A DNA stretch of 64,000 nt from Forficula auricularia (Eukaryota; Arthropoda; Insecta; Dermaptera; Forficulidae), in NCBI GenBank assembly GCA_024734495.1, contig JALMQS010000061.1, positions 10,708,616 through 10,772,615 of the forward strand. The letters run 5' to 3'. Position numbers and translations under genes: made by a program. The notes under the pieces are model-generated. The model was not told the origin of the DNA and searched no databases. It worked only from the letters and a program-made list of their open reading frames with translations. Of the stretch, positions 17,201 through 58,400 are shown one piece after another; the stretch's first letter is position 1, and each line of letters begins with the position of its first letter.

Positions 17201-20200
17201 CAAATCTTGTATACATATGGTAATCAGTGGGCCCACAGTAATCTAAAAATACATGATGGTAAATAATTTTATTAAATATAAGTGAGGGGCCAGGTTGTAT
17301 GGTAAAGTCAAGTGGATGGCCACATCAGAACACGTCAGCTTATTTTCCCTAAATTAACCCTCCATTTTAAAATGATTCGAATTTTGACGACATTCAACTT
17401 TCGTAATTTTACAACCTAAGAATGTATTAAAATAAAAAACATTGTTGAAATTTACATATGATTTTTGATAAGATAATATTAAACCCTGTAGTTTTTCCTA
17501 GTTTCCCGTTGGAGATATACTCATGTACTTTTAACTATAATTATATTTTAAGAAAAGTATAGTGAGTGACTCATGCAAATGAAAAAATTGGAATCAAAGA
17601 AAAGTGCTTAAAAAATGTTAATACAAAGTTAACTTACTAAAAAATCAACTGGATTATCCTTTGTTTCTTTGTCCACTTCCCACCAACTTCCCTCATTACA
17701 ACATCCGTAAAGAAATACATTTTTTCTTCTAGAATGCCCATGGAAGTCACAGTAAACATAAGGAACTTTATTTAAAACGCGAACGCTGTATTGCATCAAG
17801 CCCTATAACAAAAGAAGCATTGAAAATTATTAAGAAAATTTTGATGAAATTATAAATTTTATCTTTGCATTTATAAAAATTATTCCAAATTAATTAATTA
17901 ATGTAAATGTATACGTCGTAATCGAAGAAATAAAATATATTTTATATTGATATTAGACTTCCAAAGTTAACAAATTCTTATAAATCAATATAAAATTATT
18001 TAGTTTTGTTTATTAAATGTTTAAAATGATTACTAATTACTTTTGAATGAAAAATTACGGGATGTAAATTCTTGTTTGGGTGACTCCAACGACGATTAAG
18101 ATCCTCATCCGAAAGACCACAGCGATAACTAAGAACAAAGAAATATAACATTTAATAAATTCAATCGCGAAAATATAAGCTTTAACAGCTTCATATTTAA
18201 TAAAGAAATATATTTTGAGTTGAGATGTTTAGTGAGGTACTGGACGCCCAATAAGCAGTTGTACGGCCCTGGAGTAAATGATACAATGTCTTCTTTCTTG
18301 GAATTTTTTTTTCTTAAATTGAATGTTTTTTTCCGAGAGTAGCAGAATTTTTATAAATTGAAGGAGACAATAAAAGAGTGTATCTTCTGCTGGAATTATA
18401 AATTTTTAATTTATTTATGACGAGACTATAGTTTCGAGAGCTTTGCCCTCTTCATCAGTCTATTACAAATGATTCACATACATTAATTCCTGTGAATCAA
18501 TTGTAATAGACTGATGAAGAGGGCAAAGATCTCGAAACTATAATCTCGTTATAAATAAATTAAAAAATTTTAATTCCAGCAGAAGACATACTCTTTTATT
18601 GTCTCCTTCAATTTTTTTTTCTTTATTACTGGTTAAATTCAAATTTGATCCTTGGCGGTCTGCGAGGCTTCTTCTGTACCTCCTTTTTCCCCCACCCCTC
18701 TGGAGGTGAGAGGTCGTCTTTGCCTGTCTACCAAGTTCAGTCGACTCCGTTCATTCGTTGAAGGCTCTACTTTCTTGCTTACTTTCTATCCTTACTCTTA
18801 CTTGATTTACTTAAGACAACCCTTGCTACTCCTAACGCCCTTCTCTCTCGGATATGACCCCTGTTACTCCTGCACAATCTTCTCTCGTCGGCCGATCCTG
18901 CTTCTTATACGTTTCTTTCTCTCCTTACAAAAACCCTGCCACGTACCACCTGCCTTTCTCCCGTAACTGACCCTGAGCGACACCACAAGCTTTCTCGATA
19001 CCATTGGCTTGAATAGAATCATTCATTGTATTTATTTATCCCTTTATAATAAAAGCGAAGTGATTTTATATATGAAGTGTATTTATTTGAGTGTTTTCCG
19101 CCCGGTTTAACTACAATTCTACCCATTCTATCCGGCACGGACCCTATTTCCTACAGTCCACTAACATCAACCCTAATAAATCCCCTTTTTGGATTTAATC
19201 AATTACTTTTGTACTTATGATATCCCGTATGGAAATAAATAGATTTTCGAAATAAGTTTTTTATATATTTTTCGAAAATATATTAAAAATATAAAAATTT
19301 TGTGTTAAATTTATTTAAAATTATATTAGAGCGACATAAAAATAATTATATTTTAAGAATATATAGAAAACATAAGCTTTATATAAATTTAACACAAAAA
19401 TTTTATTTTTTTAATATATTTTCAAAAAATAAATAATCTATTTATTTAGGGATAGAGACGAGTTTCGACATTAATTATCTGTCATCATCAGTCTGTACAG
19501 AGAATTGATGTCGAAACTTGTCTCTATATCATAAGTAATAAAAAAAAATTTCCAAGAAAGAAAATATTGTATTATTTACTCCAGTGCCGTACAACTGCTC
19601 ATTGGGCGTCCAGTACCTCACTATACATCACAACTCAAGATTTTCCCATTCATAGCATTTTTTTAATTTGAAATATATTTTGTTTTGCTATAAATTTTCC
19701 GATCTTGAATAATAAGAAATAAATTACCATCCATTGATTACGCCTTCTGGATTGAGCATAGGAACTACTTTAAAAACATAAGTGCTACGAAGCCAACAAG
19801 CAGTACTTGAATTCGAAAGTAGATTCATTAGTGTACCAAGCATCACCCACGAAGCATTGCTTTCGCCAGGATGAACTCTTCCAGTTAAAAATATTATTTC
19901 CCGAGACTATAATATACACAAATATAGATGAATAAATTAGTAAATATTAAACACATTTAATTATTTAATGTGTACCTCTATAGGATTTGAAGACGTATTC
20001 GGTGCTGTGATCGTTATTACCGGAGTATCATTATTATTTAGGGTAAGACAAAGGGATTCCGCTCGATATATAATTTGAGTTGGTTCCACTTGAGTAGACC
20101 AATTCCATATACTAGTCTAAAACAAAAAAAAATTCTGAAATGTTGAAGAGTTTCAAATTTTTTTCCGTATGAATATATCTTAAGAGTTTAATAAAAGAAT

Positions 20201-23200
20201 ACATGATGTCTGTTGTCCAAAATAATATGGATGAATAAAAATACTAAATTAGATATTTTAGATATTGTTTTGTGCTTTAGAAGCAAGTATTGTTTATTTT
20301 TTATTATTTCAGTAGGTAAGTTTATAAATACATGAATGAATAAAAATGATTACCAATAATTGCGAATATGTATATGGGTAATGGTAAGCAATGTAAACCA
20401 CATCACTAGCATATGGAAAAGTAATAGTGAATGTAGCAGTTAAATATTCTCTTCGTTTATTTCCTGGACTAGTATAAGAGTTTCGGAAATAGCAAATATC
20501 TGTTCCAGCTCGGATCCATCCTGTTTTATTTCTTTCCCAATCAAGAACACTGAAGACCACAGGTCTCATTCCTACAAATCAGAATATAAATTAATGTTCA
20601 ATATTTCTACTATTTTTTATTGTAAATTGGTATACAATAATAAATGACTTTATAAAATAAGATTTCATTTCTGTTTATTAATATAACAAAATTAAAGTTT
20701 AAATTTTCCTTTATTCTTAAACTTATGGCTGGCATCTGTGGAGAGGGGCTGCCAAGCATTCTCTTGGCACCCGATTCAATTCAGGAGAGAGCAATTAAAT
20801 TAATAGGAGACACAGCCATATCACCCCTTGATTTCCTGGCTCAACATAGAACCGTTTCCATTCTTTCCCACTACTATAGATAATATCATGGTGTTTGTTC
20901 TGATGAATTAAAGCTAATAATTTCCCCCACGCTCCCCAAAGGCTTATTTATTTGAAACATAGAATTTTCTAACGCTCAACATCCCTTCGCTGTCGATTTG
21001 GATAAGAATCGAGCCAACGCTTCTATCTCTATGACCTGTAGAGTGTAGAGTGGAACTCTCTTCGTGGTTCCTGCCACCGTTTTTCAGCTATATAAGACCC
21101 TCATCCACAGATACCTTCTACTACACAACCCAGCCCATGAAATCTCTTCCTCTTCTTCTTTTCTAGAGCGTTTAAAGGAGATGAACCTTCTTGGTTAACT
21201 CCTTCTCGCATCAATATCATTAAGAAAAAAAAAGAAAAAAAATAGGTTAAAATTTAGAATCATTTTTAATCGTAATCATCATAGAGTATACAGTCCTAAG
21301 ACTGGTTTGAAACAACCAGACGCCTCCATTCAACTCTTTTTCTTTTTGATGATCTCTCCTCTGATAGCCGGAGAGATCCGAACGGAAGGCTAGTTTATAG
21401 AAAATTTTACCTGAAGACGTACCATAATGTTGTGTAATATAGTGAACGTAATGTACTGGTTTCCCAAGGCTTTATATATTGTAAGATGTTGAAAGTGTCC
21501 GTCACCCCCATTTTAGGAAAGATTAGGATATAAAAGAGGAGCTGATATAGATGGAATAAGGGTTAGGACATACGGCTCTCGGCAATACGATGTGTTAGAA
21601 ATAAGAGCAAGTAGAGTCGCTATCCCTTTAGTAGATCTCTCCTTAACAAAGATCTTAAGAGTTTTTAAGGAATTTGGTGTTGGTACTTGGTGAAACATTT
21701 TTTAACATTATTGGATAAAAAATACTTGGTAGGTTTCACATTAAGATATAAAAAATAAAACGAATTTATTTTTGGAGAATCTTTAATCTCGATATATATA
21801 TTTCGGGTGACTAACCCATCTTCAGGAGAAATAGAAAGTAACTGACCTGGATAAGTCGAATTTGAATACAAGTCAATGGTAAAATTTATTTTTAAGATAA
21901 CAAAAGGGTAAATATTTAAAATTAGTGGAGGGAGAAAGGTAGGAAGTCTATTTTGTTTCATTTTGAATGGCCTTCTGAGAAATGAGGATTTACACTCAGG
22001 TAGGTGTAGGGGTAATGAAAACAGTCACCCGAAATATATATATCGAGATTAAAGATTCTCCAAAAATAAATTCGTTTTATTTTTTATATCTTAATGTGAA
22101 ACCTACCAAGTATTTTTTATCCAATAAGATCTTAAGAGTACACACCCGCTACGATGGAAAATATTTATGAAATGAAAAGAAACGGAAATAGATAATTAGA
22201 AGAGATCTTAGGGTTAGGAAAAAGTTGAGAAGAGGAAGAATTCATGGAATACGTCCCTACGTCGAATTATCACGTAGTTACTAGTTTCAAAAACTAGTAA
22301 TCCATGCAATAATTTTTTAAATTCAAAAAGAGATGTAAGAAGTATATATATATAATGGGAAATACCAACTACCTCCCTCAAATAATTCTTAAAATGACAT
22401 CCTCGCTCACATCCCAAAGCATGTCCATTAATAGTGAAAGAAATCTACACATTAATTTCAGAAGTTATAGCAAAAAATTCCGCAGCTATTAAACTTTAAA
22501 GCTTTAACTCAAGCACAGTAAATTAATTGAAAAGTTTTTGTTTTGCCGAGAGTAGCAGAGTTGTTGATTCACTAAGAGAAACAAAGAGGTTGTCCTCTGC
22601 TTGATGCAAATAAACATACACACATATATATCGAAATTATATATCTGTATATATATTATTTATTTGTTTGAGACTATAGTTTCGAAGGCTTGGCCCTCAT
22701 CATTAGTCTTTTTAATTATAAATATTATTTTTCATTAGATCAGTATCGCGTGGATATTGAAAAAAATGTTCTCAAACAAATAAATAATAATATATACAGA
22801 TATATAATTTCGATATATATGTGTGTATGTTTATTTGCATCAAGCAGAGGACAACCTCTTTGTTTCTCTTTGTGACAGTAAATTAAAATTTAAATATTGA
22901 CTCACCAAAATTAAATTGACTTGCATGTTTTTCACAATTTACAATATTAAAAATATAAGGCTTATTTGCTTCCATATTAGTAACTTCAAAATAAAACCAT
23001 TGATGATGTCTTGTAGAATTAATGTCGGGCATTACAACTAAATCATATTCATGGCCATTTGCCTATAAAATATTTTTAATAAGTATAATTTGCTTGAATT
23101 ACTTTATATTATTTTTAATATAAATTATGAATAATAATAGACTATAATAATATAATAACACGATGTCCATAAATAAAAACAACTATGTTTAACTTACGGT

Positions 23201-26200
23201 AACTTGAATAGCTTTTCTTAAATTACCACTTTCGAATCTAGATTCAAAATGTAATGGCCCTCCAAAATATGTAGGATTAGATGTGACATATTCTAAATCC
23301 TTGTTTGTCAGATACGAATGGCTCTTTTCTTTTTCATTATTCTTTTGATTTTCTTGGCTATTGTTTGAAGCAATTAATAGATCAAGGTCATAAACAATTT
23401 TATGCATTAATAGTCCAGGATGCAAACCTCTGTCAATTGAACGAAGTAATTTTGCTCTACAAATATGAATTTATTATTAATATTATTCACTCAGTAATAA
23501 TTATTAAACTATCAAAATTAATTAAGATTATAATAGCAGAGACAATAATCTAGATTCAGAATTCTGTTTATCTGTCTAACCAAGGTTTGTAGCTCGAAAA
23601 CTAAATATGATAAAAACTTGAAATTTACAAGCCAAATGTATTCATTTTTCACAGAATCAAAATCCGGAATAAAATTTTAATCAAATTTTTTTTTTAATTT
23701 TGCTTTAAAATGTCAGGGTGTGTGAGCTCCAAATTGTCAATTTTTAGGTGATTTTTATACCTGTCAGTATTTGGAAATGGCTTAAATTGATATTATAAAA
23801 AATCCACAAATTCTCACATTCTCTCTTTACCAAAGATAAATATGAAGAATGATATCTTTTAGTATAATCAATTTTCTGTTGCCTGACGGTCTTTGGGCGG
23901 GTCTGACGTTTTGAATTTCCAGAACGACCAGCCATTAAACTAATAATATACATATCTGACCAAAAACATAAATGTGAAAAAGGGTTCAAGTTCGGTACCA
24001 ACGGCTTCGCCGACAAAAGAGTTGAGATCTAAACGGGTACCAAGTTCCATAGCAGTTGCAAATCATAGCTATAGGGATGAACAACAATCTTCAATTGATT
24101 TAAAAAAAAATTTGTTACTTTCTTTGATATTAAATTTATAAAACTGCAAGTTATAATAGTCAATAAATTACGTTTAACGTGATGATATTTAATACAAGCT
24201 TAAAATTTATGTAGTTCTTATTTTATACTACAAACAATTTAGTTGGAAATAAAACTTGCCAAGTTATAAATTTAATATCAAAGAAAGTAACAAATTTTCT
24301 TTTAAATCAATTGAAGATTGTTGTTCATCCCTATAGCCATGATTTAAGCAGCTGCTATGAAACTTGGTACACGTTTAGATCCCAACTCTCTTGTCAGCGA
24401 AGCCGTTGGTACCGAACTTGGCCCCTTTTTCACATTTATGTTTTTGGTCAGATATCATTAATATTTGAAAAATTTTATCCTTTAATTTATCTAAATAATT
24501 ACATTTAAACATTTATATTAATAATAATTAAATATTTCTCATAAAATATCTGTTAAAAACCCGGTCGGTTTTTCATAAATTTCACCCCTTCATTTCGGAT
24601 CCCGAAGAAGGAAAGTTTCGGTTTTTCAATTTCCTCCTTTATTAATGTTCCAAGCTTTACCAGTATGCCAAATTTCAGAATTCTAGCTTGATTGTATTTT
24701 CACTATATGTTAATTAAGCCTATAATCAATTTCACCCCTTCATTTTAGGTCCTGAAAAAGGGAAAGTTTCGCTTTTTCGATTTTTCCCTTTAATTGTAGC
24801 CCAAACTCTACCAGTATGCCAAATTTCAGCATTCTAGGATCAGCGGAAGTACTTTAGGTTTTTGATATGTCAGTCAGTCAGTCAGTGTTAAAAATGGCAC
24901 TTTTCAGAGCTTAATAACTCAAGAACTATATTAGATTTATTCATGAAATTTGGGATTCTAGGTGTTCTAGTGGGTCTTATTAGGGATGCAAAATTTCAAA
25001 TGTCTAAGTCTAATAGTTTTTGAGTTATGGGGGGTCGAAAGTAGCTTGAAATGGTTCGTGTAAATAAACACATGGCCGGTGCGTCGCCCGTTTTTCCGAA
25101 CATGGCTGGCACACTGCCGTGTGTCTAGATATAATTCCCTATACAGAACCCTCTGTATGTAAGTCCGGCTAGCAGTTTCGCAGAGTAAAAATTTGCAACC
25201 ACTCTATTTACCCTACCAAGGACATTATGTATTTGTATTTATGTTTGATTAAATCATTAGTAATCATTTTCTTAAATTTTTAATTTTCATGAAACCACTA
25301 CTTTCATCATATTCTCTTTTTCCAAATTAGGAAGATTTTGATGGAACTTAACCCTCGCGAATATAGAGCTTTAACTAAATAAAAATTAGAAGATTATTTT
25401 TATTTAATACTGAAATAAAATTTAAAAATTTACCAAATTTATTTATTCATCACTTTTATAATAATTTGATAACTTAATACAAAAATTTAAAAAAATTCTA
25501 AATTGACTTACCTACAAACTCTCCGATCTTTGATATTTAACGGTTCAGGTTGAGCATAAGATGGAGAACCAACCATATCAGGAAAAGCTACTTTTACAAG
25601 AGGTATGACAGCACAAACACGAGATGCTATTTGATTATAAACTTGTTCCCGGGAAGCAGATAAACCTAATCCTTCAATCGCGGGTAATCCTTGAATCATG
25701 GATTCTCCGGGATTTGGAACTCTTAAATAGAATAAAATTATTAAACTTAATTAAAATATTTTGTTTATCAATATTACTCATAATAGAAAAATACTAACAT
25801 ATTTCCATATTTACATGAACGAATGATAAATTCTCCGGAAAGGGGCTTAAATCTTGTAGCATTAAGATCTTGGTTATTGCAATTGATTTCTTTTGTAGAA
25901 GTATTCATTTCTTGTAAATAGATCTCATTATTAACATTCATCTCTTTGAAGTGATTTTGGTAGCTATTTGTGAAAAGGGAGTAAACTAGTTATTAAATTT
26001 AAAATAACAATCAAAAAATAAATTAATTGCAAATTTTGATATATTTAAAAGAACTAGTAATTACAATGAAAAGTTAATTTTAAATTAAATACGGGCTAGG
26101 TATATCATATAATATACAGGGTGATTCACGGTCGATGGCACGTTAGACGTTTATGGAAAACGGAAAGCAGGATTTTTCTGAAAATTTAGCACCTTACATT

Positions 26201-29200
26201 TTCTTACCTGTTCTATCGATCTAAAATATTTTCAGCATTGCGACGTTTCGGCTTCCATCGAAAAGTCATTAGCAAATTTATTTTTTTAAATGGAACACCC
26301 CGTATATTAACACGTTTTTAGAACCGCCCTTTAATTAAAATACATTTTTGTTAATATTGTCCTATACCTATCTCTATCGGTTTTCGAGATAAAAAATAAT
26401 TTGTGTTAAATATGGTCCAAAACATGGCCCTAATTAAACTTAAATAAATTAGTGCTCTCAATTCAAGAAAAGTTGATATTTTGGTGGTAGTTTAGATACA
26501 CCCGAAGTATTTAATTTACGTCGAAAAATCGACTCCATATTATACAGGCCGTGCTAAAATTACTATTATTTCCGTTATTTATAAAAGGGTCAAAAGTTCG
26601 GTTTTTCAAATAAGACCCCCTGTATATTACTCAATAAATTGAAAGACGAAGAAAAATGCTTTAAGAGGATATATCATGTCCCTATATCTAAAACATCAAG
26701 TTTTCTTAATAGAGGCACTTTTTCGTGAAAAATTACTTCTTAATTAATTTAATTTTAACTAACTATGGCAATATCAAGCTTATGACAATTTGTTGACTAT
26801 TTATAAGAAAGTTATAAACAGTTTATTGAAGGTGTTCAAAAAAATCTCCCAAATGACGGCAAATATTGATTATTCAAACGAAGTTCTTATGAAATTATTT
26901 ATTTTGTACTATAAGAACTTCGTTTGAATAATCAATATTTGCGATCATTTTGGGAGATTTTTTTGAACATCGTCAATAAACTGTTTTTAAGTTACTTATA
27001 AATAGTCATGAAACTGTCATAAGCATGATATTGCCATGGTTAATTAAAATTAAATTCATTAAAATGTAATTTTTCACGAAAAAGCGCCTTTATTAAGAAA
27101 ACATGATGTTTTAGGTATAGGGACATAATATATTGTCTTAAAGAATTTTTCTTCGTTTTTCAATTTATTGAGTAATATACGGTGGGTATCATTTGACAAA
27201 ACAAACTTTTGACCCTTTTATGAATAACGGAAATAATAGTAATCTTAACACGCCCTGTATTATATGGAGTCGATTTTTCTGCGTAAATTAAATACTTCGG
27301 GCCTGTCTAAACTACCAGCAAAATATCAACTTTTCATGAATTGAGAGCACTAATTTATTTAAGTTTAATTATGGCCATGTTTTGGACCATATTTAACACA
27401 AATTATTTTTTATCTCGAAAACCGATAGAGATAGTAATAGGACAACATATTAACAAAAGTGTATTTTAATAAAAGGGCGGTTCTAAAAACGTGTTAATAT
27501 ACGGGGTGTTCAATTTAAAAAAATAAAGTTGCTACGACTTTTTGATGGAAGCCGAAACGTCGCAATGCTGAAAATATTTTAGATCGATAGAACAGGTAAG
27601 AAAATGTAAGGTGCTAAATTTTCAGAAAAATCCTGCCTTCCATTTTCCATAAACGTCTAATGTGCCATCGACCGTGAATCACCCTGTATATGGGTAGGAT
27701 AAAATGTAATTCTAATTTTATAAGTTTTTTTTTTTAGCTAGACTACCCAAGATCTAATAAGAAAATGAAATAAAATGTTTCTATTAAGTAATTTCAAATT
27801 CTATTTTGTGAGAACCGTTTTCTTTCGTTATTGTTATTCCCAAGGCCTCAAAATGATAATCCTAAAGCGATTTTTAAAAGTAAAAAAAAATTTTTTTAAG
27901 AAGTATCTTAAACGTTTTATTTATGTAAGACTATGAAATGTTTAATTTAGTTGAAATAATTGAAAAGATTTTGTTTTGCCGACAGTAGAAGAGTTATTGA
28001 TCCATAAAGAAAAATCAATGTGGTTGTCCTCTGCTTGATGGAAATAAACGTAAACATATATACGAAATATAAATATGCTTATATCTATATAATTTATTTG
28101 TCTGAGACTATAGTTTCGACGGTTTGACCTTCATCATCAGTCTTTTTAATTGGAAATATTTTATCTGTATTTCTCATGGGTTCACTTATCCAAATGAATA
28201 TATGTGTAGAAAAATTCGTTATGTTGTTATAGCAAGTTAGCCAATTGTTTATGTGGCGCTTATGCCTAATTTAGAGTTCAACATGCAGTTGTTTTCCATA
28301 GGAATAGTTTAAAATTAGGAGCTAAAATTATGCTATGATTGCTAGTTAATAAATTTTCTTTGAAATAAGAATGAAGAAAACTTCAGTAATTTTTAAAAGT
28401 AAGAGCCGAGTTTGCAAGAGTTATTAAATGATTAATAATACTCATTTTATATATACCAAAGTTTAAGATCTTCAACATCTCTCATTTGAGGAGTTAAAGG
28501 TATATATCCGGTTGATTTAGTAGTGCCAGGATCTCCAGCAGGCTCATCAACAACAATATCATCCCCTAAATTTTCCTCGTCGGGTGTACTTTCTTCTTCA
28601 TCATCTGATTCTGGAGTAGAATCCCTTAATAAATTTGGATTTTTATTGTTTTCTAAAAGAAGAATTTCTGATTCAATTATAGAATAAATACTAAATAAGT
28701 ACTGCTTATTTGTATTAAATAAGTACTACTTATTTAAGATTAATTTAAAAATTCAATTATCCTATTGATATGAAAAATAATTCTTAGGCATCTGAACAAT
28801 ACATACCAGCAGTTTGGTCTATTATTGTATCGGAACAATTTAAACTTATTTGAAATTTGGCAGGACTCCGAGTTTGGTCAATAGGTAATGGTAGTTTGTC
28901 AATACAATGACCTATTATTGCACATGCGTGTGTTAGTGTTGCATCATAGGCCTTATCATCAGGGCAATTCGTACAAAATTTATATAATAAGGGCAATCCA
29001 CCCTGGCTAACAACAGCCAAACGCCCTGTCTCTAAATAAACAAAGATTAAAATAATTCAATTTTAATATTATCTAATAAGTTATAATAAATTAATAAGAA
29101 GATTTTACTTAAAGAAATAATTTTATGAATAGTCGTTATAATATTAGCGCAAATTTTCAAACGAGTTCTTCCGTCATATCTTTCCCATCTCTCAAAAATT

Positions 29201-32200
29201 TTTAAAAGTAAGTTAATCAAATTTCCAGTTTTCAATATTCGTGTTTGACCATTTTCTGTAAAGAATATATTTCATAAATTATTGATAAAAATATTTTTAG
29301 AATTAAAACATAATAGATTGTGAAATAAAGAGATAGTTATCATAAATTAAATCTTACTATGGAGAGTAGTGTAAGAAGTTTTGAAAGTTATAGAATTTAA
29401 ATTAGGAAGATGGAAGAAATTAATTAAATTATATTTTTTATGTCCTTTATTTTTTTGATTGATTAAATGGACGTTTCAGACACCTTCCCAGGTAGCACAA
29501 GAATAATCTATAAATATTCTGATAATATCTTCTCTGGATATTGGAATATCCTGTGAATAATCTTTCAATCTTCGTAGATATTCTGGGAATTTTCTTAGAA
29601 CTAAAATATTCGTGTAGGACATTAAATTCCCTTTCCCGGTATATTCCTAGTTGCGCATTCTTGGAATATTCGGAAAAGAATATTCTCAGAAGATTAACGC
29701 CCATACAAATATTCTGTGGATCTCCTGGAGATAATTGGAATATATATGTCCTTTAAATAACTTCTTAGAATATTCTGGGGATATTGTGTGTTACCTGGGT
29801 TTAAGTGTCCATCCTCAGCACACTATCAATTTTTAATCAATTTCTTCCATCTTTCCGATTTAAAGTAATCAAATAGGAGTCTATAGAAATATCTATGAAA
29901 ATTCAAATAGTTATCAGTATAAGGATGAGAAATAGGTCTTAAGGACGTTAAGAACAAATGGATAACAGATTATTAAAGAAAAAAAGAGAGAGAAAAGACC
30001 TGAGGAAAATGAAGTAGTGAAAAGTGGATAATTAGGTGAGAAGTAATAATTGAATATGCAATTTTGAAAAGGGTACATCTCGCATATTTTGACAAATACA
30101 CTTTCATATAAATATAATCTAAAAGTTTCCATTCACCTACTATGCTCGAAAAAGGCACAACGTTGGTATTAATTTCACTGCTCCCAAAATGTAACACAAA
30201 AATAAATTTTACACTACTTTAGAAAATAATTAGTTTTTTCATTTCTGAACATTTTAAATTTTCAGACATGTGCCCTTTTAGAAATTGCATATTCAATTAA
30301 AAAAATAATAATAATAATAATAAAAGTATTTGGAGAAAACTTATTAAAAAATGAATCTTAAATTTTAGTATATTTTATTGTAAATAATTTGTGAAATAAA
30401 TAAATAAATAAAACCTTACTATACTTAGATATTAAAGATATAACATGAAGAACAATACGAAGCTTTGGAGAAGGTGAGAATCCAATACTTAAAAGAACCT
30501 TTTCTAGAGTAGATAAAATATTATCTTTGAGTATGGGTTGTATTGTGTTGCCTATAAAAAAAATGTAAAAGTTATCTGTAGTTAAAATTTCATCTGAATA
30601 TAAAGAATCAAAGTTAATTACCATTTTTAACTAAAGCTTTAATTATGAGAAGGAGAGGAATTACAATTTTTGTATTATTGAAGTATGTCCTTAAAAGAGT
30701 ATGAAAAGGTTTCACCCCTCCACTCAAGCGGATTTTTGTAGCAAACTTAGGATCTATACAACAAAAGTAGATTTGAATTATAAATTATTTACATTTAAAA
30801 TTAATTAGTCAAAAATTTAGTTGTTTACATTTGTAAAACTATATGGAAATATTCAATACCTTTTTGAGAAAGTTGAGACAACACACAAATACATTCGATA
30901 AGTAGTGTATCCGTGAGTTGTCCATTTGAATTCTGGTGATGAATAATCAAGCGAACCATGGATTCCGTAGCGTTTAAAGCAATTAGTTGTGCTATTGTTC
31001 CCTTGCGGTTTTTACCTTCCAAAGGATCTATTAGTTATTAATTATTTGCAATAATTAATAATAGAATAATTAATAATAGAATAATTAATAATAGAATAAT
31101 TAATAATAGAATAATTAATAATAGAATAATTAATAATAGAATAATTAATAATAGAATAATTAATAATAGAATAATTAATAATAGAATAATTAATAATAGA
31201 ATAATTAATAATAGAATTTTAAAAACATTAGAAGTCTTACATCCTTTAGGAGAAACACTCTCATGAATAATTCCAGCTAGGCTCGCTGTAGTCATTGGGT
31301 CTCGAATAATCTAAAAGAAATGAAAAAATTACATTATATGTATAATTTTTATAAAAAAAAAATAAAACCGACTTCAAAAAAATTAAATGCAACAAATAAA
31401 ATAATAATAACTCAAAAATCAAATAAAATACACTAAAAGGTATAAAATAATTATCTAATTTAGTTAACACGAAACGATGAAATTGTTACATGAAATCACT
31501 TATTGAAGTCGGCGCCAAACATACATTTTATGAATCGCACTTGACGGATCTTACTTAGTACGTATGGCGGGTAAGCTCGCTTACCTATATAGTTTGTTTG
31601 GCACCGACTTCAAAAAGTGATTTCATGTAACAATTTCGTCATTTAGTTTTAACTAAATAAAATAATTATTTTATACCTTTTAGTGTATTTTATTTTATTT
31701 TTGAGTTATTATTATTTTATTTGTTGCATTTAATTTTTGTGAAGTCGGTTTTAATTTTTTTTTATAAAAATTATTTTTATTTTTCTCTTTTTAGTGATGT
31801 TAATAATAGTGACTTATGATAATATCTTCCATGCATCTCGTAAGAGAAAGTATCGGGCGAATGAATCAGAAAATGATAATAAAATTCAATTCATAAATAT
31901 AGAAATTCTCTCGAAACGGTTGCAGGTTTTAAATGAATGTTTTAAGTGTTTTTTTTATAAAAGATTTTATTTATTATATTATAATTTCGATTATTTGATC
32001 ATATCATCAGAACTTGACCAAATTAGTATGGGACCACCCCTAAGGTACCCCCTTTCCAATAAAAAAAGAATCATCGAAATCGGTCTATGTGGCAAAAAGT
32101 TTTCGCTGAACATACATATAATAAATAAATAAATAAATAGGTATCTAGACTACCTTGGACCTATACTTATCCAAACGCAGAAAGAATCATTAAAATCGGT

Positions 32201-40370: not shown

Positions 40371-40798
40371 TAATTGAAAATATTTTGTTTTGGCGAGAGT
40401 AGCGGAGTTTTTGATTCATAAAGAGAAATCAATGAGGTTGTCCTCTGCTTGATGCAAATAAACATATACCTACATATGTATATGTTTATTTCCATCAAGG
40501 TATATATACTTAATATAAATATTTACGTATATATAGTATATACACCTTGATGGAAATAAACATACATATATAGACTATAGTTTCAAAGGTCTAACCTTCA
40601 TCATCAGTCTTTTTAATTAGACGTATTTTGTTGTTATTTCTCATGGGTTCAATTACCTGGTTGGATATAGAAAATTGGTTTGGTTGTTATATCAAGCAAG
40701 ACACATAAATGAATCGTTTGACGAAACTGTAGTCTCAAACAAATATATTTATATATGTATGTTTATTTGTATCAAGCAGAAGACAATCTCATTGATTT
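40371..40798. mobile_element. Fold-back Penelope derivative
   Basis: Left end attgaaaatattttgttttggcgagagtagcgg; right end mirrors ttgtcttctgcttgat. Flanks tttgtcaaata and tttgtcatata are an imperfect 11-bp duplication. Contains one good hammerhead core on the minus strand and a degenerate one at about 40725-40742. Confidence 0.75.
40571..40612 (-). ncRNA. Hammerhead ribozyme core, family A
   Basis: Minus strand: CTGATGA, stem II AAGGT-tag-ACCTT, GAAAC, TATA, GTC. All invariant bases present. Confidence 0.68.
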
Positions 40799-41157: not shown

Positions 41158-41212
41158 TACAAACTCAATATATTTCGGATTATTAGTCCATCATCAGGAG
41201 TTTACAAGTTAT
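41158..41212 (-). ncRNA. Hammerhead ribozyme core, family E (minus)
   Basis: Minus strand: AAACTC-CTGATGA, stem II GGA-loop-TCC, GAAA, TATATT, GAGTTT. AAACTC and GAGTTT give a 6-bp stem I. All invariant core bases are present. Confidence 0.72.
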
Positions 41213-41217
41213 TAACT

Positions 41218-41268
41218 TGTAAACTCCTGATGATGGACTAATAATCCGAAATATGTTGAGTTTGTATA
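41218..41268 (+). ncRNA. Hammerhead ribozyme core, family E (plus)
   Basis: AAACTC-CTGATGA-TGGACTAATAATCC-GAAA-TATGTT-GAGTTT. Same fold as its mirror; one base differs in the stem III region. Confidence 0.7.
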
Positions 41269-44695: not shown

Positions 44696-45092
44696 ATTGA
44701 AAAGTTTTTGTTTTGGCGAGAAGTAGCAGAGTTGTTGATTCACAAAGAGAAACAAAGAGGATGTCCTCTACTTGATGCAAATAAACATACACACATATAT
44801 ATCGAAATTATATATCTGTATATATATTATTTATTTGTTTGAGACTATAGTTTCGAAGACTTGGTCTTCATCATCAGTCTTTTTTAATTATAAATATTAT
44901 TTTTCATGGGGCCAATATCCATACGGTATTGACACCATGAAGAAAGACCAAGACTTCGAAACTATAGTCTCAAACAAATAAATTTATATAAAATAAATTA
45001 TATATATTATATATATATATATATAATTTCGATAATTATGTGTGTATGTTTATTTGCATCAAGCAGAGGACAACCTCTTTGTTTCTCTTTTT
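44696..45092. mobile_element. Short fold-back Penelope derivative with 12-bp target duplication
   Basis: Same ends as 22526-22874. Flanks aaaatattatta at 44684-44695 and 45093-45104 are identical. A perfect hammerhead core lies on the minus strand of the left half, and a degenerate copy is mirrored at about 44937-44976. Non-coding. Confidence 0.87.
44841..44882 (-). ncRNA. Hammerhead ribozyme core, family A (perfect)
   Basis: Minus strand: CTGATGA, stem II GAAGAC-caa-GTCTTC (6 bp, perfect), GAAAC, TATA, GTC-TC. Identical in core and stem II to the one ending the Penelope-like element at 54720-54762. Confidence 0.75.
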
Positions 45093-45104
45093 AAAATATT
45101 ATTA

Positions 45105-47841: not shown

Positions 47842-49406
47842 TCGATGGTTCGATGATGAATGCAAGAACATTATAGAGATGAAAAATAAAGCCAGAATGA
47901 CAATGCTACAAAATCCGAGTGAAGAGTCCATAGCCAACTTAATAATCTTAGAAATATTGCCAGAAAAAAGCTAAGAAAAAAGAAGAGAGATTTTCAGATG
48001 AGGAAGTTTATGGAGATTGGAGAAAGTCATAGAGAAAACAACATCAGAAAATTCTATAAAGAAGTGAAAACTATTAAAGGTGGCTATAAACCAAGAAGCC
48101 TAAACATGTTAAAAAGAAAGGACGGAACTCTAATTTCTCATAAACAGGAGATCTTGAACACCTGGAAGGATTACTTCGACATACTTCTAAACAAAAACAC
48201 AATCGACGAAGAGGAAATTGACCTTCGGTTATAATCGCAGATGAAGTGGAAGTGGAACACCCCACACTGGAAGAAACAATGATGGCAGTGAAGTGCCAAA
48301 AAAATAATAAATCCCCAGGGTACGATTCAATAACAGCGGAGATGTTAAAATACGGAGGCGACTCACTTCACATGGCAATTCACACCCTTATAAGACAAGT
48401 ATGGCAAAGAGAAGAAATACCGGAAGAATGGAAGAAGAGCACTATAGTATAAGGTAGATGGGCAACTTCAGTGAACCGTTTGAGGTTACAAACGGTTTAA
48501 AACAGGGTGATGCTCTCTCGCCGGTGCTCTTCAATTTGGCGCTTGAGTGGGTGATGAGGAAGATTCATGAGACTCCAAAGATATTTACTCCTCGGGGAAC
48601 CAAATTGACCTTGGCCTATGCCGATGATATTGACATCATAAGTGATAATTTAGAAGAGGCAATGAAGACTTATAGGAGACTGGAAGAAAGAGCCAAAAAA
48701 ATCGGCCTTACTATTAACGGGGCAAAGACTAAATATATGCATGTAAAGAGATACTCTACATTAAGAACTCCATCTAACTTGAGCATAGGAAACGCCAAGG
48801 TGCAAAAGATCCACGAATTTAAATATCTCGGTACACTTATCACTGATGATAATGTAACGAGATGTGAAATACAGGAGAGAATCCAGAACAGCTGGAAATG
48901 CATATATGGCTTAAAACAACTTCTTAGGTCCAAAGCCCTCCGCCGAGCTGAAAAAATTACGATATATAAGACCATCATCCAGCCAATAACAATGTATGGG
49001 TCTGAAACCTGAAAAGATTTGAACGCAAAGTCCTTAGACTAATATATGGTCCAGTCAGGGATCAAGAAAGGGGCGAGTATAGAATAAGGACAAATAGGGA
49101 ACTTCAAGGACTCTACCAACAACCTGATATTGTTCAGCTAATTAAAGCCAACCGGCTTAGATGGGCTGGACATATGCTACGCGCCGATAAAGAATAGGGA
49201 GAGTATGGGAGGCAACACCATGTGCAAAAAGACCCTTAGGACGGCCGCGTATGAGGTGGAGGGACAACATCCAAAAAGACCTCAGGGTTCTTGGAGTCGA
49301 TGACTCGGAAACCAGCGCCCAAGACCGTGGAAGATGGAGACAAATCGTCCATGAGGCCAAGATCCACAACGGATTGTAGCGCCGAGGAGTAAGTGAGTAA
49401 GTAAGT
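47842..49406 (+). mobile_element. 5'-truncated, internally deleted LINE with 13-bp target duplication
   Basis: Flanks attaatatttgct at 47829-47841 and 49407-49419 are identical. Coding pieces: 47845-48235 (region after the endonuclease, ENNIRKFYKEVKTIKGGYKP); 48243-48452 (KNNKSPGYDSITAEMLKYGG, RT motif 1); then a jump to 48458-49012 (GLKQGDALSPVLFNLALEWV and LAYADDIDI, the RT active site). A frameshifted tail reads RLRWAGHMLRADK, and the element ends in a gtaagtgagtaagtaagta tail. About 110 residues of RT between PEEWKKS and GNFSEPF are missing. Dead copy of a LINE common in arthropods. Confidence 0.88.
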
Positions 49407-50800: not shown

Positions 50801-51190
50801 TTTATTATGTAAAATTGAAATGTATCATTTATCTAAGATTGAAATTAGAATTTGTTTTTAATTGAATGACAATCAGCTGTTGAATGTCAAACAATTTTGA
50901 CATTTACAAAAATAAATTAAAATTGTAAAAAAAAATAATAATAAATAAAAAATAATAATCAAAATTAAAACCAAGGCCTTAAATTGTAAGTTACAGCTTC
51001 ACAGATAATTTTTTATTAATTATGTTATATATTTTTACTCGACCCTCAGCCATAGTTATATTTAGATTTCAAATGTTGCTTTCTTTATTTTTTAGTGAGC
51101 TCCGAGTTCAATTTAAACTTTCTGTCAAAAACTAACTTTTTTCTTTAATTTCTCTGGATATTTAATTTTCGTTACCCAATTTTATATGAA
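50801..51190 (+). promoter_or_regulatory. Probable promoter and 5' UTR of the FASTKD-like gene
   Basis: Second copy of the duplicated 400-bp block, directly upstream of the gene. It includes cagctgttgaatgtcaaacaattttgaca and tttttagtgagctccgagttc. No TATA box can be asserted. Conservation of both copies shows the duplication is young. Confidence 0.5.
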
Positions 51191-52460
51191 ATGTATTTAA
51201 AATTACTGAAATCTAGAATCCAAAATATCAGTAATTTAATTTTTAATAAATATGCTAATGCCAAGTTTTTTTCTCAAAATTCTAATTCTTCATCCGGACT
51301 TGTTTTTGCACCATTTAAACTTCAAACTAAATTGTTAAATTTTTTCCAATCCAAGGCTTCTTATGAAAATAATACTCTACAAATAAATAATCAACAAAAG
51401 AAGAAAAGTGACAAAGTTAATTCACAAATTTGTGGTCAAATTATAGAGAGGAACAATTTTAACGAATTAAATAATAAAGAATTGACATTCTTCTTTAACG
51501 AATTATATTTCGATTCACCAAAATTGAAAAATATTTCAAAAACACTTCAAATTCTGGATAGAGAATGTTTTAATAGATTTAATCAATTATCATTAGAAGA
51601 AATTTTAAAAATACTTGATGCCTTCTTACTTTTAGATTCCAGAAATTTCACGAATCTAAACTTTTATAAGAAATACTTGGATTTTATAAAGAATTGCAAA
51701 TATAATAATATTTGTAAACGAAATTTAATTAAATGTGTGTTTTATTTAGGATTATCGAAAAATCTTAAAATAGGACAGGATATCTTTGCAAATCCAAATT
51801 TTTTTAATTTTGTTGATTTAATGCCGGAAGAAATGTGTGTGTTTTTGGATGCTTCATTTAAACTAAATTATATATTACCTGAAGAGGTCTTGAACAATAT
51901 AGTTGAAGAATTTTCAAAAAATTCATTATTCTTTTTTGAAGAGCCATCTTATTTAGTTGTTTTGGCTAAAGTTTTTAGACGTAATAACAAATATAAAAAT
52001 TATAGTTTTTTAAAAGACTTATCTAATTATATTTTAAAATATGATACTCTAGTAAAAAAATTTACTTTCACTGCAAATGCTCATATTTTAGCACTTTTTG
52101 CTCAAAATTATTTTTATGAAAAAAAAAGTTTTAATCTTTTAATTGATGTTAGTAATCAAGCTTTAAAAATGGATTCAAATAAGGATTTAAATGCTCATTT
52201 TTCAAATCGAATTCGTGCAAAAGATATTTGTCGAATGTTGTGGTCAATTTCTCATTTCGGAATTTGTCATGAAGAAGCCTCAGAATTTATTGATCGACTA
52301 TTATTAGAAACACATAAACGATTTAAAATAAATGAGTTTCAATCTCATGAAATGCTTGGATCTTTACTTTCATTAGTCATGTTGTGTGACCCCATTAATA
52401 AACCACTTGAAACTCTGCTGGATGAAGCATTTACGGAGAATCTAATCGATGCTGTTCTGG
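51191..52460 (+). CDS. FASTKD-like exon 1
   Basis: Starts at ATG 51191, the first in-frame ATG after the 5' region; an identical ATG lies in the upstream duplicate at 50438. Ends CTGG|GTGACT, phase 1. If not spliced, the frame would stop at 52471 after GDY. Confidence 0.85.
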
Positions 52461-55400
52461 GTGACTATTAATTTTATTTTAATTGAAAAGTTTTTGTTTT
52501 GCCGAGAGTAGCAGAGTTGTTGATTCACAAAGAGAAACAAAGAGGTTGTCCTCTGCTTGATGATGAAATCCACACCTGGTTGACAGAAATCCTTCATGCA
52601 TGCCAATTTGATATTAAAGATTGTGAAATAAGAGATAGGGTTGAATTTTTAATGGTTAAAAAACAAGCCAAATTAGACAATAAAATTAAGAATCTTAAAA
52701 CAAATAAAAAAATTAAAAAACCAGAAAAACATATAGAAGCAAAAACAAGTAAATTCAATGATAGAGTAAAAAACTTCTCTAAAGAAAAATTCGATAAAAT
52801 AGAAATAGAATTATTGGAAAAAGGTTTGAAACACTCAGTGGAAACCCCAATTAATAGAAACATTATTGAAGACATCGTAGTAAGCGACAAAGGAAATTCA
52901 GTTGTAATTTTAGATCAAAAAACATACATAGAAAAAACCGAAGAATTCATAAAAGCACAAAAATTCGTAGAAATTAAAAACCCGGTCAATAAATTCAGTA
53001 AAATCGTTAAAGAAAAAATCAAAAGTTCAGAATTACTTTCAAAAAAAGAAAAATACATTCTAACAGAAAGAAATCCACAATGCCCAAGGTTATATGGACT
53101 TCCCAAAATACACAAGTCAGAGGAATTAGAAAAAATTCCCATTAGACCCGTCGTTTCTTATATAAACTCATCAATAACAAAACTTGCAAAAAAACTAAAC
53201 AACATTTTTCGAGAAAGAACAAAATTTAAGGCAGAACATTCTATTCAAAACTCAATCGAACTTATAGACAAAATTAAAGATATTAAAATTCCTAATAATG
53301 CGAAGCTTCTATCCTTAGATATCACGAGTCTTTTCACTAATATACCGCCAAACGAAACAAAACAATTAGTAGACAAAATTATTTTCAGGTCAGTGGGCCT
53401 AAACAACCTGGAAAAAATGGATCTAAGCAGTTTGGTCCACACATGTATCAACCACAATTTCTTTCAATTTGGGAACAAATTTTATGAACAAAGGGAGGGA
53501 TTATCAATAGGATCTCCATTGTCTCCGTTATTAGCAGAAATATTCTTAAATGATTTTGAAAATAAATCTTGACAATGAAAAATATTCAAAAAACATTATA
53601 TACTATTATCGATACGTAGATGATATAATTTTACTATTGGGAGGAACAAATAGACAATTAGACACATTTATAGAATATATAAATAATCTTCATGAGAAAA
53701 TTAAATTCACAGTAGAGAAAATACTAAATTTTTTAGATTTAAAAATAAATATCTCCGGAAATAAGCACACCTTTGAAATTTATAGAAAACCCACAGCTAC
53801 TGACATGGTAATACATAAAAATTCTTGTAGACCAATGTCACATAAACACGCAGCCTTCCATTCAATGATACATAGACTAATAAATATACCTCTATCAGAA
53901 AAAGCATATTCACAAGAATTAGAGACAATTAAAGAAATCGCGGTAAATAATGGGTACGAAGCAAGCCTTATAGACCAAATGTTAAATAAAAAAATTGAAA
54001 AATTAACCCTGGAATCAGTATATTCACAAAAGAATGAAAAAGAAAATCCTAGAATAGTTCTCCCATATTATGGACAAATTTCGGAAAAATTAAAACAAAA
54101 AATGAAAAAATTAGGGTTCAAAACAGTATTCAAAACTCCAATTACTATAGGAAAAGATTTAGGCTCAAATAAAAAAGACAAATTACCAAATATAGAAAAA
54201 GAAGGGGTTTATAGTTTGAAATGCAAAGATTGCGAAGCAATATATGTAGGAAAGACCGAGAGAAATCTGAAATTCGATTAAATGAACACATAAGAGACTT
54301 TAAAAATAAAAAGTGCGAAAATTCTTTTGCAGAACATTTAAATTCAAACAATCACTCCTTCCCAGAAGGTTTTAGATTGATAAAAGGAGAAAAGAACCCA
54401 AAATTAATTAGCGCAATCGAATCTTTAGAAATTTTGAAATCATTCAATAGAAATTCAAAACTCTGTTTGAACAATCAGATTGAGTTGTCGAATAGTAATG
54501 TGCTTAAGATGTTTGCTAACAAAAGATAAAAGGAAAAAAACCCTTTTTTTGTCAGCCTTTCTAAGGAGAAAGGAGAAAGGGAAACATATTGTTATATTTG
54601 AATGTAAGCCCAGATAGAATGTCTTTATTAGTTCCTAGCCCTCCAGCAGTGACGAAAGAACACCAAGTTTTCAATATCCATATGATATTGACTCCATGAA
54701 AAACATTCATAATTGAAGAAAGACTGATGATGAAGACCAAGTCTTCGAAACTATAGTCTCAAACAAATAAATAATATATATCATCTCGATATATATGTGT
54801 GTATGTTTATTTGCATCAAGCAGAGGACAACCTCTTTGTTTCTCTTTATTAATTTTATTAACTTAAAATTTAAAACTAACATTACATTATACTAAGTGGA
54901 TATTGATGAGGTAGTCCAAAAAAAAGAAGATAATTTAAACTATCTTTTTATTCATAAACTGACGTTTCGGAGGCTTTTCCCTCCTTCGTCAGGGTTTTGA
55001 AAAGTCAGTGAAGGAAATCCAATGCGACATTCCCCTCTGTCTCCTCTTTGAGTGGCAGTAACAATAATATATTGTATTTCATTCTCAGCAGAATTATACA
55101 TCATTACTACATTATAATTCTGCTGAGAATGAAATACAATATACACTCACGAGCAAAGAAATGGAATCAGACCGTAGTATTAAGGTTGTCATCGATGGAA
55201 TATCATCTTTCCCCTTCCACACCAACGCTGGAGTTCCTCAGGGATCGGTTATCTCCCCCACGCTTTTTCTTATCTATATCAACGACCTTCTAAACTTGCC
55301 CTCCAATCCGGTACATTGCTACGCAGATGACAGCACCCTACATAACGCCCCTGCATCGCATAAAAACCGTGCAGACATTGCTTCCTCAATTAATTTAGAC

Positions 55401-58400
55401 TTATGCAAACTTAAAAACTGGGGATCCCAAAACTTAGTTAACTTCAATGCAGTGAAAACTCATTGTTGCCTTATTTCTAGGCGCGTCGCTGCACCTTTTT
55501 GGTGTAACTCCTTCTCTCATCATTTTCATAAAAAAACCTACCTTGCGAGTTGTTAAATGTAATTTTCATTCCCAAATATATATAATAATTACAATATAAT
55601 ATATTTCCATTAGGTTATCATTCTACATTTATTTTATGCCTCCTCTACACTATGAGCCAACTTGGCCCAATTCAAGCCAATGTCAATGTGTAGAGGGGGG
55701 TTGGCTTGTATTGGTTGACGCTGGCGATGAGATTGGCGATGGTTGGCCTTCGAAGCGGATTTTTCGATATATCAAAGAGGGCCAATGTTACGCAACGAAA
55801 GTGCCCAGTGGCTAGGTGTCGTTTCCACAAGGCCATAGACATTGGCCCAACTCTTGAACCACTGTGTGGAGGCACCGTAAAATTAACTCGTTTTACTGGT
55901 GGCCATAGTGTAGAAGGCTCATTAAATGCTGAAAAATGAAACTTGTAGAAAAAATATTTAAATTTCTAATAAATTACAAAGAAACATACAAAGTATCATT
56001 GAATTAATGAAAAGGGAGTGATTCCATTTCTTTGCTCGTGAGTGTATATTATTGTTACTGCCACTGAAAGAGGAGACCGAGGTGAATGTCGCTTTGGATT
56101 TCCTTCACTGACTTTTCAAAACCCTGAAAAAGGAGGGAATAGCCTCCGAAACGTCGGTTTATGAATAAAAAGATAGTATAAATTATCTTCTTTTTTGGAC
56201 TGCCTCATCAATATCCACTCAATTTCACTTATCAGTCCGTCTCCAAAAATTGCTCCAATCTTATTATGACTAATTTATGTTTCTCGGATAATTGCTTAAT
56301 TATTCGGGATACACGGGAGGACGATTTTTTTTTTTTATAATGTCTAAAATTTCTAAAAAGAGAAAAAAAAATCATTTTTTCTGAATGTGTGCCTTAATCT
56401 ACTATGTAGACACTCACAAATGGAAACTCATAAAAAACAGAAACTCATAAAAAGTTCGTTCTAATGCTTAAATATTTATATTTTCAAAACTAATAGTTAT
56501 TAAACTGCTATATTTATATCTTACATCTATATCCCAAATATTAACTCAATAACTTAAAATTCATCAAAGATCTGAAGCCTTTTGTGTTTAAGGCCCCGAA
56601 ATCAAAAATTCCTTATTTTCAGTTAACGGGTCAAATTTTGAAAAAATGAAAAGAAAAATTCGAGATATTTTATCAATTAACATATGTATCAAAATTGAAT
56701 GCTAAAACTCAAAAAACCGAGGAGATATAACACTATAAAAATTTCAAAAATTTACCCCAAAATGACTATATCTCTCTTTTAGTGGCAAATAAAACAAAAT
56801 ATCCAAATAGTTTTTTTTTTTCTATTTTAATGCTTCACCGTTCTAAACTAAAACCATTTCTTTTTTTTGAATTTTGGACTGCCTTATCAATACCACTCTA
56901 TTCAGTTATCAGTCCTTCTCCAAAAATTACTTCATCTTATATTATAATATACACTTTCAATTACAATAATTAAGATTAAAATGTTCCGATCTATCTTATT
57001 TGATGTATTTTTTCTCCAATGTTTCTATTGCTGCTTGTAGAATCTTTAGTTTTAATAATGTAAATTTATTAATGAAAAATTGTAACTTATACTATTTTTA
57101 TATATTATACCATATAAGATGTTTTACCTTAGGCCGGTTCATGAGGCTGACTTTTACTCAAGGTCTTCCGCTGCGCAGAAATTGTGCAGTGTGGACCGGA
57201 CTTTAGGATTGTAGACAAAAAGTATTTGAGAGTACAATAGAAAAATAAATTTTATTTATAGAAATAAATTTACACAATAATTATAACAATAATCAAATTA
57301 TGATAAATATATATTTGTTTTAGCTAGGAACAAGATACGATATGATGCAAGGCTCCGCCTTTTATTAAAGTGTCTTAAAATAGAAAAACCTCATTTAATA
57401 AATTTCCCACAAAAGAAAATATCTAATAGAGTCAAAAGAGAAATAAAAAATGAGCTAGAAAAACGAAAAGAATTAAGACATATGTGGTATATTATGGAAA
57501 AATATAAGAAAAAATTGTCATTTTCACATGTTGAGTTGAGGCATTTTATCTCAAATATATATATTTGTGGAATCACAGCATATTCTTCAAAAAGGTAAAT
57601 TTGTTCTTTTATTTCTGAAAATAATATATACATTAATAAAAAAATAAAATACAGTGCAAATATTGAATGTATTACAATTAAAATGTTTATAAATGTTAAT
57701 TTTTTCATTTCATTCAGTCATTAAATTGAAATAGTAACTACAAGATTTAGATATAACTTTTAAGGAGTTAGGTGTTGGTTCTAGGTGAAACATTTTAATA
57801 TAATAATAAAACTTGAGCAAGAAGCGAGGTAAATTTCACAAAAAAGAAATAAAACAAAATTGAGTTTTGAATTAGATAAATTTCGGGGCTGAGCCCATCA
57901 TCAGGAATCAAAGAAAACTGATTATAAATTGTAAAAATAATTTTTCAAATAAAATTTTTTTCTTAGAAATATATGTGGTTAGGGGAAGAGGAGAAAGTGT
58001 ACTAAGAATTAATATTTTCAAGAAATGGAACAATTGAGTTTTTAACCAGCTGATACCAACTATACCTGCTATTATAAGAAGGAATGGGAAAGTACCTGAA
58101 AGGGTACTATTACCCTAATATCAATAATCAATGTGCGAACAATAGAAGGAATGTTTAGTTAATTTATTATAATATATAATCAATAATTGTATTTTTACAC
58201 TTCTAATTGGTTATTTAAAATATTTGAATTTTTTGAGAGGGCTATTTTAATTTCGGTGGATTCTAAGAGATCCAATTTAAGGCCTTTTCTTTCGAAATGA
58301 ATGGGGATAGGTTTATTATTAGAGGTTGAATGATTGGATTCATGTAAGTGAATTGCGAAGGCTGAGGTCGAATCTAAATTAATGTTATCTGATCTATTGA

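What the first reader, a model, noticed from the sequence alone, without database searches (positions are those of the whole stretch)
18422..57914. About a dozen hammerhead ribozyme cores of at least six families in one 40-kb stretch
Cores CTGANGA - stem II - GAAA - short stem III - NUH occur at 18422, 18509, 19452, 21787, 22670, 28104, 40571, 41158, 41218, 44841, 54720, 57867 and perhaps 54957. Stem II sequences differ between families while the invariant bases are kept; stem II of 44841 and 54720 is a perfect 6-bp helix. Hammerheads in Penelope-like elements are established knowledge. The diversity in one locus, and their spread to non-coding derivatives, is the most system-like signal here.
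Basis: partly seen in the sequence, partly recalled or inferred. Interest (0 to 1): 0.85.

Follow-up and report, generated by a model that had tools for sequence, protein, structure and literature searches.

The report
Penelope retrotransposon ends with mini-hammerhead ribozymes
The dozen hammerhead-like RNA motifs are real, but they look like the small ribozymes already known from the ends of Penelope-like retrotransposons, here mostly in short, folded-back and partly broken copies.

Summary
The motifs are real. All 13 listed sites hold a hammerhead-like core (10 on the minus strand, 3 on the plus), and 12 of 13 keep the invariant CUGANGA...GAAA. A descriptor scan finds 12 in the window against 0.46 per dinucleotide shuffle. 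They are minimal type I hammerheads in the pseudo-LTRs (pLTRs) of Penelope-like elements (PLEs): two decayed PLE coding units lie at 52568-54511 (+) and 58960-58201 (-), each with a hammerhead downstream. I see four sequence families rather than six. Only 7 of 13 pass a simple structural checklist, and Rfam's hammerhead models give no match up to E 10. The 'non-coding derivatives' are mostly head-to-head inverted pLTR pairs; two of family A, one of family B and the longest PLE unit are flanked by 12-14 bp repeats that look like target site duplications (chance 0.0046 per locus). In the four pairs folded, the ribozyme is buried in a long hairpin, so 'a dozen ribozymes' overstates likely activity. 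Minimal PLE hammerheads, many families per genome, and head-to-head pLTR palindromes are in print (PMC6155905, PMC7229834, PMC3846280; passages seen). New members of a known kind.

The parts
52479..54846 (+). Longest PLE unit (family A): inverted pLTR end, 5'-shortened RT and endonuclease coding region, 3' pLTR with hammerhead; flanked by a 13-bp repeat (52466-52478 and 54847-54859)
   Evidence: tblastn of PLE proteins 52568-54511; RVT_1 Pfam match; 13-bp flanking repeat
52568..54511 (+). PLE-A coding region, broken by frame changes; C-terminal endonuclease part recognised by homology only (no Pfam hit on 53550-54278)
54714..54764 (+). Hammerhead A54724: intact core, 6-bp stem II, stem I 2 bp
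44837..44887 (-). Hammerhead A44877: intact core, 6-bp stem II, stem I 2 bp
44928..44975 (+). Inverted partner copy of A44877 lacking the 5' catalytic part
   Evidence: (E 1.4e-4)
44697..45092 (.). Non-coding head-to-head pLTR pair, family A, between 13-bp repeats (44684-44696, 45093-45105)
22666..22716 (-). Hammerhead A22706, core broken (CUAAUGA)
22527..22874 (.). Non-coding head-to-head pLTR pair, family A, between 12-bp repeats (22515-22526, 22875-22886)
28100..28150 (-). Hammerhead A28140: intact core, one stem II mismatch; no inverted partner arm found
40567..40617 (-). Hammerhead A40607: intact core, 6-bp stem II, stem I 1 bp; partner arm found only from 120 nt downstream of the core
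18418..18468 (-). Hammerhead A18458 (subfamily A'): intact core, 6-bp stem II
18501..18551 (+). Hammerhead A18511, inverted partner of A18458; mismatches in stem II and stem III
18355..18614 (.). Palindrome holding A18458 and A18511 (arms 124 nt, 94% complementary, 12 nt apart)
19451..19501 (-). Hammerhead D19491: intact core, 4-bp stem II, stem I 3 bp; inverted partner lacks the 5' core
   Evidence: (E 9e-5)
21787..21829 (-). Hammerhead B21825: intact core, 4-bp stem II, 4-bp stem I
21663..22125 (.). Head-to-head pLTR pair, family B, between 14-bp repeats (21649-21662, 22126-22139); partner arm starts inside loop II
41161..41207 (-). Hammerhead B41197: intact core, 3-bp stem II, 9-bp stem I
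41217..41263 (+). Hammerhead B41227, inverted partner of B41197
   Evidence: 41093-41331 is 97% self-complementary
57870..57912 (-). Hammerhead B57904: intact core, weak stem II (3 of 4) and stem I (0 bp without mismatch)
58201..58960 (-). PLE-B coding remnant (RT end and endonuclease-like end) upstream of B57904
54955..55002 (-). Hammerhead C54992: intact core, 5-bp stem II, mismatch at the base of stem I
   Evidence: (E 0.007)
56112..56160 (+). Second, inverted copy of C with broken core (CUGAAAA)
   Evidence: (93% identity)

Best explanation
These are minimal type I hammerhead ribozyme motifs that belong to the pseudo-LTRs of several families of Penelope-like retrotransposons in an invertebrate genome. 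Shown here: the motif, its excess over chance, PLE coding units beside two of the motifs, inverted pLTR pairs, and flanking 12-14 bp repeats at four loci. Inferred from the literature: in a transcript that runs through tandem pLTRs, two such motifs, or one motif helped by the PLE protein, cleave the RNA just after NUH and so trim element-length RNA. The non-coding copies arose as short PLE insertions in which reverse transcription produced two pLTRs head to head. In most of these the motif is damaged, or paired with its own inverted copy, so I expect little or no cleavage at most of the 13 sites; the best single candidate for activity outside a palindrome is 54724, and even there stem I is only 2 bp.
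For: Excess over shuffles; stem II double changes; a family A model finds D and C independently; RT matches in both coding units and PLE relatives among 368 protein matches, best 120 listed; pieces of PLE proteins map 5' of hammerheads 54724 and 57904; inverted pLTR pairs in 7 of 8 loci aligned; flanking repeats of at least 12 bp at 4 of 9 loci tested against 0.0046 per random pair. Literature, passages only: all available PLE sequences carry such minimal hammerheads lacking helix III (PMC6155905); minimal motifs in PLE pLTRs in tandem may cleave as dimers (PMC7761336); the Anolis PLE hammerhead cleaves only with its protein (PMC11167929, main text read); head-to-head pLTR palindromes in a rotifer (PMC3846280). 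In 9 of 13 listed sites the stem III segment is self-complementary, as dimer cleavage needs.
Against: No Rfam hammerhead match up to E 10. Family B scores at background with the family A model. Stem I of family A is 1-2 bp in all 7 copies, short for an active hammerhead. The isolated minimum-energy fold of 54724 and 54992 is an extended hairpin, not the hammerhead. No family C or D coding unit was found. The window's own endonuclease stretch gave no Pfam hit.
Confidence: 0.86

Rival explanations
1. The motif is kept as a structured hairpin (for binding the PLE protein or as a DNA palindrome for self-priming), not as a ribozyme. In family A the segments AGACU and AGUCU, and in family C CUGACG and CGUCAG, pair around stem II and displace the catalytic core.
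For: Minimum-energy folds of 54724 and 54992 show this helix; stem I of the hammerhead form is 1-2 bp in family A; the core-broken copy 22706 still has both pairing segments.
Against: Unpaired hammerhead bases (GA after N7, GAAA) are kept across families that share little else; family B has no such helix; PLE hammerheads cleave in vitro in another species (PMC11167929).
Confidence: 0.12
2. The non-coding copies form a separate ribozyme system, like metazoan retrozymes that spread as small circular RNAs, independent of PLE ends.
For: Short, non-coding, hammerhead-bearing units with flanking 12-14 bp repeats.
Against: Units are inverted pairs, not direct tandem repeats; their ends match the ends of the PLE-A unit; one hammerhead per arm on opposite strands cannot release a unit-length RNA circle by two cuts of one transcript; the only nearby tandem arrays (536-2206, 32817-33273) hold none of the 12 descriptor matches.
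Confidence: 0.06
3. Chance matches in AT-rich DNA.
For: The window is 70% A+T and Rfam models see nothing.
Against: 12 against 0.46 expected; the copies lie in defined repeat families with PLE coding units.
Confidence: 0.01

Closest known systems
Minimal type I hammerheads of Penelope-like elements (Cervera and de la Pena 2014; Lunse, Weinberg and Breaker 2017; both not held, known to me by title, by later papers and by recall)
   Same: Location in pLTRs of PLEs, short or missing stem III, self-complementary stem III segment, many damaged dispersed copies.
   Different: All 12 descriptor matches here were best fitted with one extra nucleotide between A9 and stem II; I could not compare this with the published PLE consensus. 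Family A has an unusually short stem I.
PLE of Anolis carolinensis, PAc (PMC11167929)
   Same: Hammerhead at the pLTR-ORF junction; PLE with RT and endonuclease.
   Different: In PAc activity needs the protein and is not needed for insertion in vitro; not tested here.
Penelope families of the rotifer Adineta vaga (PMC3846280)
   Same: Inverted, head-to-head pLTRs with palindromes at the junction; target site duplications of 8-10 bp in the passages seen; sequences caught between pLTRs.
   Different: Here the flanking repeats are 12-14 bp and three of the four repeat-flanked units have no coding region between the arms.
Metazoan retrozymes (PMC7229834)
   Same: Short non-coding units with type I hammerheads and many families in one genome.
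   Different: Retrozymes are direct tandem repeats with fuller hammerheads; these are inverted PLE ends.

Membership tests
Hammerhead ribozyme, type I | Invariant core CUGANGA ... GAAA ... NUH | tested here: met
   12 of 13 listed sites keep the core, 22706 does not
Hammerhead ribozyme, type I | Stem II pairing kept through compensatory change | tested here: met
   3 of 6 stem II pairs with changes on both sides in 7 family A copies; two of five measures there do not exceed shuffles
Hammerhead ribozyme, type I | Open-ended stem I of several base pairs | tested here: inconclusive
   More than 3 unbroken bp in 3 of 13 sites
Hammerhead ribozyme, type I | Score with curated covariance models | tested here: not met
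   No Rfam hammerhead match up to E 10; I attribute this to the short stems and extra nucleotide
Hammerhead ribozyme, type I | Self-cleavage after NUH | not testable with these tools
   Needs transcripts
PLE minimal hammerhead | Sits in the pLTR of a Penelope-like element | tested here: met
   Shown for A54724 and B57904 beside coding units and, by sequence similarity, for other A and B copies; C and D have no coding unit in the window
PLE minimal hammerhead | Reduced stem III, suited to dimers | tested here: met
   Self-complementary stem III segment in 9 of 13 sites; cleavage as dimer not tested
Penelope-like element | PLE-type reverse transcriptase | tested here: met
   RVT_1 in 52487-53569 and 58409-58996; nearest relatives are PLE-like proteins
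Penelope-like element | GIY-YIG endonuclease | tested here: inconclusive
   C-terminal parts of P0002 and P0004 map there and P0004 is named a GIY-YIG protein by its source; no Pfam hit on 53550-54278
Metazoan retrozyme | Direct tandem units of about 150-400 bp each with a hammerhead | tested here: not met
   Hammerhead pairs are inverted; tandem arrays found do not hold the descriptor matches

The most novel reading that the evidence does not exclude
The repeat-flanked head-to-head pLTR pairs (22527-22874, 44697-45092, 21663-22125) are a distinct non-autonomous class moved by PLE proteins: short inverted units that keep one hammerhead and a truncated inverted copy of it, so that the transcript can switch between a ribozyme fold and a self-silencing hairpin. 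In 5 of 7 pairs the partner arm lacks the 5' catalytic part, which could be selected rather than accidental.
Probability: 0.12. Interest if true: 0.45.

Novelty: new member of a known kind. Interest (0 to 1): 0.24.

Why it matters
It turns a striking list of ribozyme cores into an ordinary account: several PLE families in one repeat-rich stretch. It offers a concrete, testable reason why minimal hammerheads are found scattered in non-coding animal DNA (PMC7761336): short inverted pLTR insertions with flanking duplications. It also warns that counting cores overstates activity, because inverted pairs are predicted to hide the ribozyme.

Tried and rejected
Rfam at gathering and at E up to 10: no hammerhead; the matches listed were AT-rich or palindromic hits to microRNA and snoRNA models below their cut-offs. 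Rejected as evidence either way on its own.

Search for close copies elsewhere: the family A pattern had no exact match in viral contigs or genome contigs; PLE loci: 2 weak ones in genome contigs and none in viral contigs, without a core of the form searched.

Extra nucleotide between A9 and stem II: patterns with and without it matched 64 and 25 stretches in viral contigs. The two patterns differ in length at the 3' end, so the counts are not comparable; I only note that both forms occur there. These loci were not tested as hammerheads.

Partner arms start at the ribozyme cut site: rejected as a rule. Of 7 pairs one (22.7k) starts within a few bases of it, ambiguously; 21.8k and 19.5k start in stem-loop II, 44.9k has lost the core, 40.6k starts 120 nt downstream, 18.4k and 41.2k run past the core. 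An eighth locus (28.1k) showed no partner arm.

Flanking repeats: 9 loci, of which 4 reach 12 bp; A28, A40, A18, B41 and C gave 6-8 bp and are not claimed. One search tried 10 more boundary pairs (some the same loci with other ends): two gave 12-13 bp, one inside the 32817-33273 tandem array and one about 30 bp away from the right end of 18212-19641; both set aside.

Six families: set aside for four. 55241 (minus) and 51293 (minus): treated as chance.

Naming the host gene at 51149-52471: it looked FASTK-like to me from memory, but no Pfam or PDB match supports it, and the one relative has no name.
Full report
What was checked. The window is 64,000 bases, 70% A+T, with no tRNA and broken reverse transcriptase frames of several kinds. 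Its nearest named relatives are invertebrate: the PLE protein search lists beetle, damselfly, fly, ant and other animal proteins among the best 120 of 368, and a LINE-type RT at 48458-49009 has aphid and spider proteins among its named matches (107 matches). The host species stays unknown.

The motifs. All 13 listed sites show a hammerhead-like core: 10 on the minus strand and 3 on the plus strand. The descriptor scan (core, optional extra nucleotide, stem II, GAAA) gives 12 matches against 0.46 on average in 100 dinucleotide shuffles, maximum 4. Eleven of the 12 are listed sites. Every one of the 12 was best fitted with one extra nucleotide between A9 and stem II. Natural hammerheads with an extra core nucleotide are in print at least by title (De la Pena and Flores 2001, seen in the reference list of PMC6155905).

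How intact they are. With an intact core, stem II without mismatch, NUH, at least 1 bp of stem III and at least 2 bp of stem I, 7 of 13 pass: 54724, 44877, 18458, 19491, 41197, 41227, 21825. The other six fail on core (22706), stem II (28140, 18511, 57904) or stem I (40607, 54992, and also 57904). Stem I is 1-2 bp in all 7 family A copies. Stem II in family A has double changes at 3 of 6 pairs; of the five summary measures, cells paired, cells with double change and covariation score exceed all 500 shuffles, the other two do not.

Covariance models. Rfam's hammerhead families give no match in the window up to E 10, nor in two short stretches around 54724 and 41227. A model from the 7 family A copies finds D19491 (9e-5), a truncated inverted copy at 44928-44975 (1.4e-4), C54992 (0.007) and 31971-32020 minus (0.022); B41197 is at 0.46 and the other three B sites are not listed up to E 10. 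So A, C and D support each other; B stands on its own core, its stem I (9 bp in 41197 and 41227, 4 bp in 21825) and its PLE-B neighbour.

Families and elements. Self-comparison and the model search give four families. A: 54724, 44877, 22706, 28140, 40607, and the subfamily 18458 and 18511. B: 41197 and 41227, 57904, 21825, in three subgroups 62-65% alike. C: 54992 and the broken 56124, 93% alike and inverted. D: 19491. PLE coding regions map to 52568-54511 plus, in more than one frame, and to 58960-58201 minus; hammerheads A54724 and B57904 lie downstream of them. The PLE-A unit (52479-54846) sits between 13-bp repeats, just after the stop codon of an unnamed gene at 51149-52471 whose single relative is 69% identical.

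The non-coding derivatives. Of 8 loci aligned against their own right-hand side, 7 show an inverted partner arm. In two (18.4k, 41.2k) both arms hold a core; in five (44.9k, 22.7k, 40.6k, 21.8k, 19.5k) the partner lacks the 5' catalytic part. The arms of the A pairs end in the same sequence as the left end of PLE-A. Of 9 loci tested for flanking repeats, four have 12-14 bp: 22.5k (12), 44.7k (13), 21.8k (14) and PLE-A (13); random pairs reach 12 bp with frequency 0.0046 (5000 pairs). These look like target site duplications, so these pairs are insertions in their own right. This matches the head-to-head pLTR palindromes and 8-10 bp duplications reported for rotifer Penelope elements (PMC3846280, passages).

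What the folds say. In the four inverted pairs folded (six folds), 19-31 of 28-31 core positions pair with the other arm. Outside pairs, 54724 keeps stem II but its minimum-energy fold closes an extended helix in place of the hammerhead core; 54992 does the same; 57904 keeps part of stem II; the 201-nt stretch around 21825 does not form stem II. Energy folding does not model the hammerhead's non-standard pairs, so this counts against easy folding, not against the motif.

How it works. Shown: the motifs, pLTR context, inverted pairs and flanking repeats. Inferred: transcripts through tandem pLTRs are trimmed by paired or protein-assisted hammerheads. In the Anolis element cleavage needed the protein and was not required for insertion in vitro (PMC11167929, main text). 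For these copies I expect little cleavage at most sites.

What is known. Passages seen: minimal hammerheads in all available PLEs (PMC6155905); scattered minimal motifs in non-coding animal DNA and in PLE pLTRs, possibly acting as dimers (PMC7761336); more than 6000 type I motifs in 16 families in one coral (PMC7229834); PLE hammerheads in Terminons (PMC6431247). The two founding papers are not held; from recall only, Lunse and colleagues report about 150,000 such variants. A search for non-autonomous, inverted-repeat, hammerhead PLEs (35 papers hold at least 4 of 5 terms, 20 listed) showed none by title, which is not proof of absence.

Limits. The whole-genome search did not answer in ten tries, so copy number, tandem arrangement and local excess are untested.

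Noticed in passing
536-2206: 119-bp tandem satellite (about 10 copies, then 3 inverted) carrying GAAACGTC and CTGAAGAC on opposite strands; not a hammerhead on one RNA, but reminiscent of the two halves.
   Followed up: partly
51149-52471: Open frame of 440 aa with one relative (69% identity) among 5.8 billion proteins and no Pfam or PDB match; the PLE-A insertion's flanking repeat covers its stop codon, in the same orientation.
   Followed up: partly
54895-56219: Inverted family C copies (93% alike) enclose about 1 kb with an RT fragment (55068-55553) of a different, LINE-like kind; could be a captured or nested sequence.
   Followed up: no
26112-27691: 1.6-kb near-perfect palindrome (92% self-complementary), unrelated to the hammerheads.
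   Followed up: no
18212-19641: 101-nt inverted ends (91%) enclose both the 18.4k palindrome and hammerhead D; possibly one composite element.
   Followed up: partly
32817-33273: Four copies of a 114-bp tandem repeat, 97% alike.
   Followed up: no
   Followed up: partly
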